Below the pieces are notes generated by a model that did not search any database, was not told the origin of the DNA, and saw nothing but the letters and a program-made list of their open reading frames with translations. DNA of 64,000 nt, from the NCBI RefSeq assembly GCF_002920915.1, contig NZ_PQVF01000005.1, forward strand, positions 124,001-188,000, given 5' to 3'. This document shows, piece after piece, positions 51,024 through 55,543 of the stretch. Source of the stretch: Solitalea longa. GTDB lineage: Bacteria > Bacteroidota > Bacteroidia > Sphingobacteriales > Sphingobacteriaceae. A program made the position numbers and the translations under genes. Position 1 is the first letter of the stretch. Every line of letters starts with the position of its first letter.

Positions 51024-52100
51024 TTAAACAACTAACTCTTTGTTAGCCAACGCGTTTTGGATAGCCACTTGCTGCGCTACTTTCTCAGCAATATCAGCAA
51101 ATGCCAAACTCACCGGATGCTCATTTTGTAGAGCCACCGGTTCTCCATTATCTCCTCCCTCACTAACTGCCATTACTAAAGGAATTTCTCCCAAAAGCGG
51201 CACTTCAAATTGCTCGGCTAATGTCTTGCCACCTCCTTTTCCAAACACATAGTATTTATTATCAGGTAACTCAGCAGGTGTAAAGTACGACATATTCTCA
51301 ACTACACCTAGGATAGGCACTTTGACGCCTTCCATTCTAAACATACCGGCTCCCTTTTTAGCGTCAGCCAAAGCCACATCTTGGGGTGTGGTTACTATTA
51401 CCACGCCTGCAACCGGAAATCCTTGAGCAAGGGTAATGTGAACGTCACCTGTTCCCGGAGGAGTGTCAACCAATAAATAATCTAGATCACCCCAGTCAGC
51501 ATCATTGAATAGTTGCTTAATCGCCGACGATACCATTGGGCCTCTCCATGGAATTGCCTGGTTGGGGTCGGTGAAAAAACCTATTGAAAGTAATTTGATG
51601 CCGTATTTTTCGATAGGTTGAATTTTATTCTGCCCATTTACCTGAACCATAAATGGTTTAGCGTCTTGCAGATTAAACATTATTGGAATAGAAGGACCAT
51701 ATATATCGCCATCAATTAAGCCTACTTTTGCGCCTTTTTTGGCCAAAGAGATGGCTAGATTAACCGCTACTGTAGATTTACCAACGCCCCCTTTTCCTGA
51801 TGCAACGGCGATAATGTTTTTAATATTGCTGAATGTATTGGTGCTTTTTGTTGTAACTCTCGATGTCATGTTAATTTCAACCTCCGCTTCCTTATCAACA
51901 AAATGCTTTATCGCATTTACACAAGCATTTTTTATTAAATCTTTAAGGGGGCAAGCCGGAGTAGTAAGAATTACAGAAAAGCTAATTTTTTTTCCATCCA
52001 CCTTCACATCTTCAACCATTTTTAGAGTTACTAAATCTTTTTTAAGATCAGGCTCCTCAACGTTGCTTAACGCCGCCAATACTTGTTCTGTAGTTATCAT
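51024..52100 (-). CDS. mrp: Mrp/NBP35-type ATP-binding Fe-S carrier
   Basis: A 358-residue cytosolic P-loop ATPase of the Mrp/ApbC family. Residues about 1-80 are a MIP18/DUF59 domain with TPACPLKD. The deviant Walker A SGKGGVGKST is at about 101-110, and the Switch motifs DGDIYGPSIPIMF and VDTPPGTGDVHITLAQ follow. In many homologues ENMSYF is followed by a CxxC cluster site; here it is ENMSYFTPAELPDNKYYVFG with no cysteines, which I recall as usual for Bacteroidota. It is upstream of nfu. A TAATTTTG element on the minus strand lies 30 nt upstream of its start. Confidence 0.93.
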   Translation of the reverse strand: MITTEQVLAALSNVEEPDLKKDLVTLKMVEDVKVDGKKISFSVILTTPACPLKDLIKNACVNAIKHFVDKEAEVEINMTSRVTTKSTNTFSNIKNIIAVASGKGGVGKSTVAVNLAISLAKKGAKVGLIDGDIYGPSIPIMFNLQDAKPFMVQVNGQNKIQPIEKYGIKLLSIGFFTDPNQAIPWRGPMVSSAIKQLFNDADWGDLDYLLVDTPPGTGDVHITLAQGFPVAGVVIVTTPQDVALADAKKGAGMFRMEGVKVPILGVVENMSYFTPAELPDNKYYVFGKGGGKTLAEQFEVPLLGEIPLVMAVSEGGDNGEPVALQNEHPVSLAFADIAEKVAQQVAIQNALANKELVV

Positions 52101-52137: not shown

Positions 52138-52198
52138 ATTAAAAAAACAGGATTATTAGGCTTTTGTTTAGTTACACAGCATTATTAAGTATAAGAAA

Positions 52199-53422
52199 AT
52201 GGCTACCGTCAATCTTTGTGTAAGACCTGATATGAAAGACAATAACGGGCTTTTACCTATTTACATGATTTTTCAGCACAGGGGGAAGCGATTTAAGCAT
52301 TTCACAGGATTAAAGATTCAGGAACAAAACTGGGATGTTAAAAAGCAAGAGGTAATTGAACTTAACGGCAATACCGCCAGATGGAATAACACATTAACTA
52401 AGCAAAAGATTCAGCTGTTAAATGCTACCCAGCAAATTTTAAAAGAGCATAAGGATGCCGATGTTCAGGAAATAAAAGAAGCATTTTATAAAGATCTGTT
52501 TAAATGTGGGAGTGAATTTTTTGCTGAGCTGGCCACTTTTATCGAAGAATCGCGGCAAACCAAGAAAGAAAGCACTGTGTTTGTTTACGAAACGCTTATT
52601 AAAGACCTAAAGCTCTTTGAAGACGCCGACGATTACCTGATCAGTTTTCATAATCTTAATTCGGATTTTTATGTTCAGTTTACCGGGTTTCTCGAAAAAA
52701 CCCTGAACAACACTAATAATACGATCAGCAAAAAAATAAAGGCGCTAAAAGCTTTTCTTCATTATGCTTCGGATAAAAAGTTGATGCAAACCGCCGATTT
52801 CGAAGGTTTTGGCACTAAAACCATTGAAACGCCTAAGCTTTCGTTAACAGATGCCGAAGTTGAACGTTTGTATACCTTAAACCTTAGCTTAAACAAGGAC
52901 CTGGCTATAATTCGCGACATTTTTATGTTTGGATGCGTAACCGGATTAAAGTATTCAGATATTATTAAACTGAAAGTGGATGATGTAACAGAAGATAAAT
53001 TGCTGATCATCAATCAATATACCTATATAAAGACCCGTATTCCGATGAATAATTATGCACGTTTTATTCTGAAGAAATACATGGGTGAAAAAGGTTACTG
53101 TTTCCCATTTGTGCAAAATGTTTATGCCAATAAACACCTGAAAACCCTTGGTAAAATGGCTGGCATTGAAACCCCTATAAAGGTGAGTATTCATAAAGGC
53201 GATAAGATCATTGAGAAACAAAAACCTAAATACGAATTAATTACTACCGATACTGCCAGATATACCTATGCTGCCTTATCTTTGAGGGCAGGTATGCGCC
53301 CCGAATTGCTTATTCAGGTACTTGGTCAGAAAACAATTAATGCCTTGTTAGAATATAGCTATTTCAGCAGCCCAATGAATGATTTCGAGATGGTTGATTG
53401 TTGGAATAAAAAATTCTTTTAG
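52199..53422 (+). CDS. Tyrosine-recombinase-family protein with substituted active site
   Basis: A 407-residue protein with the full layout of Bacteroidota tyrosine recombinases: an arm-binding domain (about 1-85, VNLCVRPDMKDNNGLLPIYM...), a SAM-like core-binding domain (about 105-200) and a catalytic domain (about 210-400). The family active site is Arg, Lys, His, Arg, His/Trp, Tyr. Here the first Arg is Lys251 (VTGLKYSD instead of TGLRYSD), the His two residues before A-R is Asp351 (TTDTARYTY), and the His of LGH is Gln377 (VLGQKTI). Lys278, Arg354 and Tyr386 are in place. It is probably weak or inactive in strand exchange and may be a chromosomal DNA-binding protein. No att repeats or cargo flank it; the next gene follows after 3 nt. 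Confidence 0.85.
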   Translation: MATVNLCVRPDMKDNNGLLPIYMIFQHRGKRFKHFTGLKIQEQNWDVKKQEVIELNGNTARWNNTLTKQKIQLLNATQQILKEHKDADVQEIKEAFYKDLFKCGSEFFAELATFIEESRQTKKESTVFVYETLIKDLKLFEDADDYLISFHNLNSDFYVQFTGFLEKTLNNTNNTISKKIKALKAFLHYASDKKLMQTADFEGFGTKTIETPKLSLTDAEVERLYTLNLSLNKDLAIIRDIFMFGCVTGLKYSDIIKLKVDDVTEDKLLIINQYTYIKTRIPMNNYARFILKKYMGEKGYCFPFVQNVYANKHLKTLGKMAGIETPIKVSIHKGDKIIEKQKPKYELITTDTARYTYAALSLRAGMRPELLIQVLGQKTINALLEYSYFSSPMNDFEMVDCWNKKFF

Positions 53423-53425
53423 GTT

Positions 53426-55543
53426 TTGAAAATATTTCTAAGAAAGTATTGGTGGATTTTTGCCATTGTTTTGGTTGGGTTGGGTATTGCCCTCACCGTT
53501 TTGTTTGCTAAGCGCGAGCAAATTCTGAGTAGCACCCTGGCAAAGATCATTAACACTCAACGCAAAGAAAATCAGCTCGATATTAAAATTGAAAATGCCC
53601 ATTTTACAGGCATTGCTACCGTTCGTTTTGATAAGATTTCAATCGTTCCAATCCAAAAGGACACGCTCCTTACCATCCGGAACTTTGAGGTTCAGGTTAA
53701 AATTTTACCCTTACTTTTTGGCGATGTAAAACTTGCTCAAATGCAGCTGCTGGATAGCAGGCTTACATTGGTTAATCGACACGGTGTAAAAAATTTCGAC
53801 TTCCTTTTAAAGGAGCGTAGACGCGATACGACTGAAAAAACAGAGCTTGATCTTGCCAAACTGGCCAATAAGCTTATTAACAAAGTTCTTTATAAGATTC
53901 CTGATAATCTTGAACTCCGGAATTTTGAAACTACTTATACCGAAACTGATAGCCTTAAAACCACCAGCATTTTAGCCAAAGAAGTATTAATTGATAACCA
54001 AAAACTTAGTTCAACTTTTATTTTAAACAATGGTGAAGCAGTTTGGCATTGTAAAGGCATGGTTGATGGCGGTGATAAAGAACTTGATGTAAAGTTTTAT
54101 GCCGAAAAAGGAAAGGTAGACTTCCCCTTTCTTCAAGCCAAATACAACTTAAAGGTTAGTTTTGATACAGTTTCGGCCCGAATGGACGGAACCAGCTACC
54201 ATGGAGATGAATTAAGCATTAAGGGTGCCTGTGGCATTAGAAACCTGCTGATCAATCATCCCAAAATTGCATCCAAAGACGTAATTGTTGATAATGGCTC
54301 GATAGATGCCACTGTGGTTATTGGTAAAAAATTTCTGCAACTGGATAGTGCTTCAACCGTTCACTTACGCAAGTTGGATATTCACCCCTTCATCAAGTAC
54401 ACATTAAAGCCTGAAAAGGTTTATGAACTTAAACTGGGTACCGACTGGCTTAATGCACAAGATTTTTTTGATGCGTTTCCGCAGGGAATGTTTGAATCAT
54501 TAGAAGGTATAAAAGTAACGGGCAAATTAAAATACGGACTCGATTTTTATTTGGAAGATAAGGATCCGGATGCTTGTCGCTTTGATTCTCACTTAGATAA
54601 AAAGGACTTTAAAATATTGAAATTTGGGGTTGTAAACCTTCAAAAAATCAATGGTCCTTTTGTTTACACGCCCTATGAATATGGCAAACCAATGCGTAAT
54701 ATCACTATTGGCCCAAGTAACCCGAATTTTACTCCTTACGATCAGATTTGTAATTTCTTAAAAAATGCTATCTTAACCGCCGAAGACAATGCGTTCTTCA
54801 GGCATAAAGGGTTCTTTGAGGAAGCTATCCGTAAATCGATAGCAACTAATTATAAGGCAAGAAGCTTTAAAAGAGGTGGTAGTACCATCTCAATGCAGTT
54901 GGTTAAGAATGTTTATTTGAGCCGGCAAAAAACAATGGCGCGTAAATTCGAGGAAATGCTCATTGTTTGGCTGATTGAAAATAACCGATTAACCAGTAAA
55001 GAACGAATGTTTGAGGTTTATTTAAACCTTATTGAGTGGGCTCCAAATGTTTATGGTGTAGGAGAAGCGGCGCGTTTTTATTTTGCCAAACATCCTTCGG
55101 AGCTAAATTTGGGTGAATCTATGTTTTTGGCTAGTATTATTCCTAGCCCTAAGCGTTATAGGTATCAGTTTTACCCCGATGGAGCGCTTAAGCAGCGAAT
55201 TAGTGGCTACTATTTTAATTTGATAAGCGGATTAATGCTTAAACGTGGAATGATTACCGAAGAAGACCGTCTTTCGATGTATAATGTAACACTGAGAGGT
55301 CCGGCACGTAAATATGTAATTACCGACACAACCTCTGTAGATACCACTTTTGAAGAAAATGAAGAATTTGCGCCTCAACAACTAATTGAAGATCACCCGA
55401 CAACGGAGCCTTCAACAATAAAAGAAGAGGTAAAACCTGCCGAAGTTCAGGAAGCGGTGGCTCCTGAAAAAAGTAAAGCAGAAATAAGGAAACAAGAACG
55501 AGAAGAACGTCGTAAAAGACGTAAAGAGGAACAAGAAAATTAG
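53426..55543 (+). CDS. AsmA-like protein with C-terminal GT51 peptidoglycan transglycosylase domain
   Basis: A 705-residue inner-membrane protein. It starts with TTG 3 nt after the recombinase-like gene. One membrane segment (WWIFAIVLVGLGIALTVLFA) is followed by a long AsmA-like periplasmic region (about 40-400). Residues about 425-620 are a GT51 lipid II polymerase domain: ILTAEDNAFFRHKGF with the catalytic Glu near 452, RGGSTISMQLVKNVYL near 486, and the second Glu in ARKFEEMLIVWLIE. There is no transpeptidase domain, and the tail (640-705) is highly charged. This is a monofunctional peptidoglycan polymerase fused to an AsmA-type region, probably working at the envelope. Confidence 0.86.
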   Translation: MKIFLRKYWWIFAIVLVGLGIALTVLFAKREQILSSTLAKIINTQRKENQLDIKIENAHFTGIATVRFDKISIVPIQKDTLLTIRNFEVQVKILPLLFGDVKLAQMQLLDSRLTLVNRHGVKNFDFLLKERRRDTTEKTELDLAKLANKLINKVLYKIPDNLELRNFETTYTETDSLKTTSILAKEVLIDNQKLSSTFILNNGEAVWHCKGMVDGGDKELDVKFYAEKGKVDFPFLQAKYNLKVSFDTVSARMDGTSYHGDELSIKGACGIRNLLINHPKIASKDVIVDNGSIDATVVIGKKFLQLDSASTVHLRKLDIHPFIKYTLKPEKVYELKLGTDWLNAQDFFDAFPQGMFESLEGIKVTGKLKYGLDFYLEDKDPDACRFDSHLDKKDFKILKFGVVNLQKINGPFVYTPYEYGKPMRNITIGPSNPNFTPYDQICNFLKNAILTAEDNAFFRHKGFFEEAIRKSIATNYKARSFKRGGSTISMQLVKNVYLSRQKTMARKFEEMLIVWLIENNRLTSKERMFEVYLNLIEWAPNVYGVGEAARFYFAKHPSELNLGESMFLASIIPSPKRYRYQFYPDGALKQRISGYYFNLISGLMLKRGMITEEDRLSMYNVTLRGPARKYVITDTTSVDTTFEENEEFAPQQLIEDHPTTEPSTIKEEVKPAEVQEAVAPEKSKAEIRKQEREERRKRRKEEQEN

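What the first reader, a model, noticed from the sequence alone, without database searches (positions are those of the whole stretch)
52199..53422. Tyrosine recombinase family protein with three of six catalytic positions replaced
Seen: full arm/core/catalytic layout, but first Arg is Lys251, box II His is Asp351 and box III His is Gln377, while Lys278, Arg354 and Tyr386 remain. Known: tyrosine recombinases generally need Arg-Arg-Tyr and His for efficient cleavage. Inference: the protein has lost or altered strand exchange and may act as a DNA-binding or architectural factor kept on the chromosome.
Basis: partly seen in the sequence, partly recalled or inferred. Interest (0 to 1): 0.6.

Follow-up and report, generated by a model that had tools for sequence, protein, structure and literature searches.

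The report
Domesticated, dead tyrosine recombinase in Solitalea
A DNA-cutting enzyme of mobile elements appears to have settled permanently next to a cell-wall gene in the bacterium Solitalea, lost the chemistry needed to cut DNA, and been kept by selection, most likely as a DNA-binding regulator.

Summary
The 407-aa protein is real and has the full arm/core/catalytic layout of an IntCTnDOT-type tyrosine recombinase (Pfam; AlphaFold pLDDT 88). Lys278 is not the catalytic lysine: in 143 of 143 homologues that lysine sits in the column of Tyr274, the beta2-beta3 turn. So four of six catalytic positions are replaced (R-K-H-R-H-Y became K-Y-D-R-Q-Y), with no rescuing CTnDOT-type arginine. All four Solitalea genomes held carry it (85-93% identity) with the same substitutions. 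It is under strong purifying selection: dN 0.045-0.092 against saturated dS, slower than the neighbouring transglycosylase. It lies in one fixed place, between mrp/apbC and a transglycosylase gene. In 28 other Sphingobacteriaceae those two genes are directly divergent with no such gene. Nearest relatives (at most 34%) have intact active sites. Best reading: one integrase gene was domesticated in the Solitalea ancestor, lost strand cleavage, and acts as a DNA-binding regulator. MrpR/YopR and TnsF are experimental precedents. Loss of catalysis is near certain from sequence; DNA binding is likely; control of its own operon is a guess. New variant of a known kind.

The parts
52199..53422 (+). REC: catalytically degenerate IntCTnDOT-type tyrosine recombinase, 407 aa
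52199..52483 (+). Arm DNA-binding domain (residues ~1-95)
   Evidence: Pfam Arm-DNA-bind_5, residues 14-92; three strands plus helix in model
52508..52813 (+). Core-binding (SAM-like) domain (residues ~104-205)
   Evidence: Pfam Phage_int_SAM_5, residues 107-201
52826..53419 (+). Degenerate catalytic domain (residues ~210-407)
   Evidence: Pfam Phage_integrase; fold match to lambda Int and Tn1549 Int, Z ~17
52949..52951 (+). K251 at the box I Arg position
   Evidence: R in 123/143 homologues, A/S in 18
53018..53020 (+).
   Evidence: K in 143/143 homologues; models
53030..53032 (+). K278, not a conserved position
   Evidence: column variable: P, S, E, T, R, K ...
53249..53251 (+). D351 at the box II His position
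   Evidence: H in 140/143
53258..53260 (+). R354, retained box II Arg
   Evidence: R in 141/143
53327..53329 (+). Q377 at the box III His/Trp position
   Evidence: H in 134/143
53354..53356 (+). Y386, retained nucleophile tyrosine
   Evidence: Y in all 140 homologues covering it
52162..52171 (+). TTTTGTTTAG block nearly identical in four species, possible -33 element of the REC promoter
   Evidence: alignment; promoter role inferred
53426..55543 (+). Transglycosylase-domain protein gene, starts 3 nt after the REC stop (TTG), probable operon partner
   Evidence: PF00912; no terminator-like site between them; spacing kept in four species
51024..52100 (-). mrp/apbC Fe-S carrier ATPase, divergent neighbour
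   Evidence: PF10609, ApbC

Best explanation
REC is a former mobile-element integrase of the IntCTnDOT kind that entered the gap between mrp/apbC and a transglycosylase gene in the ancestor of Solitalea (insertion shown by comparison; mobile origin inferred). It then lost DNA cleavage by replacement of Arg-I, the catalytic Lys, His-II and His-III (shown at sequence level; loss of activity inferred with high confidence). It has been kept by purifying selection as a host protein (shown). It most likely works as a site-specific DNA-binding protein that grips and bends DNA with its arm, core and catalytic domains but cannot cut. The simplest target is its own promoter region, so that it tunes the REC-transglycosylase operon and perhaps mrp (inferred). 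R354 and Y386 would remain for phosphate contact and C-terminal packing, as seen for the tyrosine in MrpR.
For: K/Y/D/Q unique among the 144 aligned sequences (REC plus 143 homologues) and fixed in four species. Strong constraint: REC dN 0.045/0.070/0.092, close to Mrp (0.038-0.072) and below the transglycosylase (0.092-0.156), dS saturated; 228 of 304 degenerate, amino-acid-invariant codons changed synonymously. Single fixed locus in four genomes; mrp and transglycosylase directly divergent without REC in 28 other family genomes. Full fold kept. REC clade 100/100 on a stem of 1.35 changes per site against a median end branch of 0.42. Nearest relatives intact; flanks of three examined look mobile or defence-linked. 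Published: Tn1549 Int R225K is an inactive control that still forms DNA complexes (PMC5871717); Cre K201A is inactive but synapses and R173A occupies its sites (PMC4381057); MrpR and TnsF precedents (PMC10516654, PMC10293859).
Against: No binding or expression data. No palindromic or repeated operator seen upstream. Net charge (+9) is below the homologue median (+20) and the core domain is acidic, so DNA affinity could be weak. Only four genomes of one genus are held. The nucleophile tyrosine and Arg-II are still perfectly conserved.
Confidence: 0.6

Rival explanations
1. REC is an accessory or architectural subunit that works with an intact recombinase of the same cell (inactive half of a hetero-complex, or a directionality factor), so it still serves recombination without its own catalysis.
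For: Six other tyrosine recombinases match in the same genome, at least four with intact sites. Full fold and C-terminal helix kept. TnsF-type proteins act beside other recombination machinery (PMC10293859).
Against: REC is the only recombinase at its locus and is in four genomes, while other matching recombinases at this sensitivity range from one (G001) to six (G000), so there is no obvious constant partner. No repeats nearby.
Confidence: 0.15
2. REC is still an active strand-exchange enzyme with a non-canonical active site in which Lys251, Lys278, Asp351 or Gln377 replace the usual residues.
For: Arg-II and Tyr386 invariant; Asp254 kept. CTnDOT-type integrases tolerate loss of Arg-I when another Arg substitutes (PMC8138268). 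Cre H289A still recombines (PMC4381057).
Against: The substituting Arg position (two residues before the Lys in A/S-type relatives) is Asn272 in REC. The catalytic Lys is gone. R-to-K at the equivalent Arg inactivates Tn1549 Int. No inverted repeats around the gene and the same gene order in four species.
Confidence: 0.07
3. REC is a decaying gene carried along because its DNA holds the promoter or translational coupling for the downstream transglycosylase.
For: The transglycosylase start is 3 nt behind the REC stop, and the ~150-bp promoter gap of other genera is replaced by REC.
Against: Protein-level purifying selection as strong as on Mrp, no stop in four species; residues 340-400 have 1, 1 and 7 non-synonymous differences from the three orthologues.
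Confidence: 0.03

Closest known systems
MrpR (YopR), master repressor of Bacillus subtilis prophage SPbeta (8A0A, PMC10516654); SroF of phage phi3T (9RD5, 9RGL; known here from entry titles only)
   Same: Tyrosine recombinase fold; Arg-I and both His positions lost; Tyr and an Arg-II-like Arg kept; no recombination found; binds DNA as a repressor; Y304F lowers binding. Both are in the structural hit list of REC (Z 10-12).
   Different: Phage-encoded, no arm domain, keeps the Lys that REC lost, ~11% identity. REC is host-fixed in a housekeeping locus.
TnsF of Tn6022 (PMC10293859)
   Different: Part of a Tn7-like transposon, zinc fingers, truncated catalytic domain; REC has the complete domain and no transposon genes around it.
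Crypton-derived DUF3504 proteins KCTD1, ZMYM2-4, QRICH1, WOC (PMC3212892)
   Same: Vertically inherited domesticated tyrosine recombinases that lost most catalytic residues; many are transcription regulators.
   Different: Animal multi-domain proteins that lost the tyrosine and Arg-II, the residues REC keeps.
IntCTnDOT subgroup integrases (PMC8138268)
   Same: Arm + core + catalytic architecture, Bacteroidota, 20-34% identity in my set.
   Different: Those have K, H, R, H, Y and either Arg-I or a replacement Arg; REC has neither Arg, no catalytic Lys and neither His, and no mobile-element genes beside it.

Membership tests
IntCTnDOT-type tyrosine recombinase (by descent) | Arm-DNA-bind_5, Phage_int_SAM_5 and Phage_integrase domains in order | tested here: met
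   All three above Pfam gathering scores
IntCTnDOT-type tyrosine recombinase (by descent) | Tyrosine recombinase fold | tested here: met
   AlphaFold pLDDT 88.4; lambda Int Z 17.3, rmsd 3.6 over 268; Tn1549 Int Z 16.8, rmsd 4.2 over 272
Active tyrosine recombinase | Arg-I, or substituting downstream Arg | tested here: not met
   K251; Asn272 at the substituting position
Active tyrosine recombinase | Catalytic Lys in the beta2-beta3 turn | tested here: not met
   Y274, versus K in 143/143
Active tyrosine recombinase | His-II and His/Trp-III | tested here: not met
   D351 and Q377
Active tyrosine recombinase | Arg-II and nucleophile Tyr | tested here: met
   R354 and Y386
Active tyrosine recombinase | DNA cleavage and strand exchange | not testable with these tools
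   Needs purified protein
MrpR-like dead-recombinase DNA-binding regulators (works like) | Recombinase fold with active site lost | tested here: met
MrpR-like dead-recombinase DNA-binding regulators (works like) | Sequence-specific operator and repression | tested here: inconclusive
   No inverted repeat upstream; only a conserved promoter-like block
Domesticated host gene | Fixed locus, vertical inheritance, purifying selection | tested here: met
   4/4 genomes, same neighbours, low dN

The most novel reading that the evidence does not exclude
A dead integrase has become a genus-wide chromosomal transcription regulator of a cell-wall transglycosylase operon (and of the divergent mrp Fe-S gene): a bacterial, non-phage counterpart of MrpR and of the animal Crypton-derived regulators.
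Probability: 0.35. Interest if true: 0.72.

Novelty: new variant of a known kind. Interest (0 to 1): 0.52.

Why it matters
It gives a clean case of a mobile-element recombinase turned host protein: empty site in sister genera, one insertion, loss of four catalytic residues, then strong conservation. Dead tyrosine recombinases acting as regulators or targeting factors are known from a few phages, a transposon and animals. A chromosomal bacterial example in a housekeeping operon would make the suggestion of the MrpR authors, that such recruitment is widespread, directly testable. It also shows that automatic annotation as site-specific integrase can be wrong about function.

Tried and rejected
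Lys278 as catalytic Lys: rejected by ungapped alignment, 143 homologues and two models. Rescue by a CTnDOT-type downstream Arg: position is Asn272. Misplaced catalytic residues elsewhere: the columns are anchored by conserved neighbours (T248, S253-D254, T275, G376). Pseudogene: rejected by dN. Invertible promoter or att duplications: no relevant inverted repeats and no flanking direct repeats of 10 nt or more. Orthologues in phages, plasmids, viral contigs: only distant relatives. A genome-contig scan found only Solitalea agri; its patterns were two exact peptides, so absence there is weak evidence. A paper search for CTnDOT residue numbers found nothing useful; SroF has no held paper.

Full report
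What is there. Window 52199-53422 (+) encodes 407 aa with Pfam domains Arm-DNA-bind_5 (14-92), Phage_int_SAM_5 (107-201) and Phage_integrase (216-326), all above the curated cut-offs. The genus is Solitalea, Sphingobacteriaceae. I call the protein REC.

The active site. I aligned REC with 143 homologues from outside the genus (about half from genomes of the same class or the window's own genome, about half from viral contigs). Column 251 is R in 123 and A or S in 18; column 274 is K in all 143; column 351 is H in 140; column 354 is R in 141; column 377 is H in 134; column 386 is Y in all 140 that cover it. AlphaFold models of REC (pLDDT 88.4) and of the intact relative L097 (pLDDT 83.5) place Tyr274 and Lys269 at the same point of the beta2-beta3 turn. 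Relatives that lack Arg-I carry an Arg two residues before the Lys, in line with the published substituting Arg of the CTnDOT integrase (PMC8138268); REC has Asn272 there. So four of six catalytic positions are lost without visible rescue.

What the substitutions should do. In Tn1549 Int, R225K is used as the inactive control and still forms crystallisable DNA complexes (PMC5871717). That R225 is Arg-I is my reading of its contact with the scissile phosphate and its distance to Y379. Cre K201A is inactive but synapses nearly normally, R173A still occupies its sites, and H289A recombines with reduced efficiency (PMC4381057). K251 and Y274 should therefore be the decisive losses, and neither is expected to abolish DNA binding.

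It is a kept host gene. All four Solitalea genomes held have it at 85-93% identity, without stops, with the same substitutions and the same neighbours. Pairwise dN is 0.045, 0.070 and 0.092 against saturated dS, close to Mrp (0.038-0.072) and below the transglycosylase (0.092-0.156); residues 340-400 show only 1, 1 and 7 non-synonymous differences. Of 304 degenerate codons with an invariant amino acid, 228 vary synonymously, among them 251, 351 and 377. The new residues themselves are thus conserved at a depth where silent sites are saturated.

How it got there. In 28 other genomes of the family mrp and the transglycosylase gene are divergent neighbours, mostly about 150-300 bp apart (three near 500); in the four Solitalea the gap is about 1330 bp and holds REC. 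Twelve of the other gaps were read and contain no REC remnant. The transglycosylase starts 3 nt after the REC stop in all four species, with no terminator-like site between, so one transcript is likely but not shown. The REC clade is a 100/100 group on a stem of 1.35 changes per site (median end branch 0.42). Its sister group is unresolved. The nearest intact relatives reach 34% identity; the flanks of three further relatives look mobile or defence-linked. G+C and third-position G+C of REC are about those of its neighbours.

How it most likely works. The full fold is retained, with lambda Int and Tn1549 Int among the best structural matches (Z about 17) and the dead-recombinase repressors SroF and MrpR/YopR also in the list (Z 10-12); Z values within one fold family do not rank function. 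MrpR lost Arg-I and both His positions, keeps Lys and Tyr, shows no recombination, and its Y304F variant binds DNA less well (PMC10516654). That offers a reason why Y386 can stay conserved without catalysis. TnsF and the Crypton-derived DUF3504 proteins are further cases. I commit to a DNA-binding, non-cutting protein, most likely regulating its own operon. Rough probabilities: catalysis lost 0.93, DNA binding 0.75, local regulation 0.35-0.4.

Limits. Four genomes, no experiments, no recognisable operator; a conserved TTTTGTTTAG block at 52162-52171 looks like a promoter element rather than an operator. Net charge is lower than in homologues. An accessory role beside an intact recombinase remains possible.

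Noticed in passing
L083 (G728), 1-1248: A second, separate partly degenerate relative: box II Arg replaced by Lys (FHVSKK) and box III His by Asn, nucleophile Tyr kept; an independent change elsewhere in the class.
   Followed up: partly
L078, L118, L164: Relatives with box III His replaced by Ile but otherwise intact catalytic residues.
   Followed up: no
L183 (G025): The longer mrp-transglycosylase gap of this genome holds a short minus-strand lipoprotein-like gene, so the gap has taken up other genes in other lineages; G012 and G034 also have longer gaps.
   Followed up: partly
G016:C35: mrp and the transglycosylase gene lie about 13 kb apart on the same strand, a rearrangement of an otherwise constant pair.
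   Followed up: no
L106, 4938-6203 and 6686-7960: Two tyrosine recombinases of different type (Arg-I and Ala-I) in tandem on one viral contig.
   Followed up: no
window 53426-55543: Transglycosylase-domain protein with a long N-terminal part without a Pfam match and a conserved TTG start directly behind REC.
   Followed up: no
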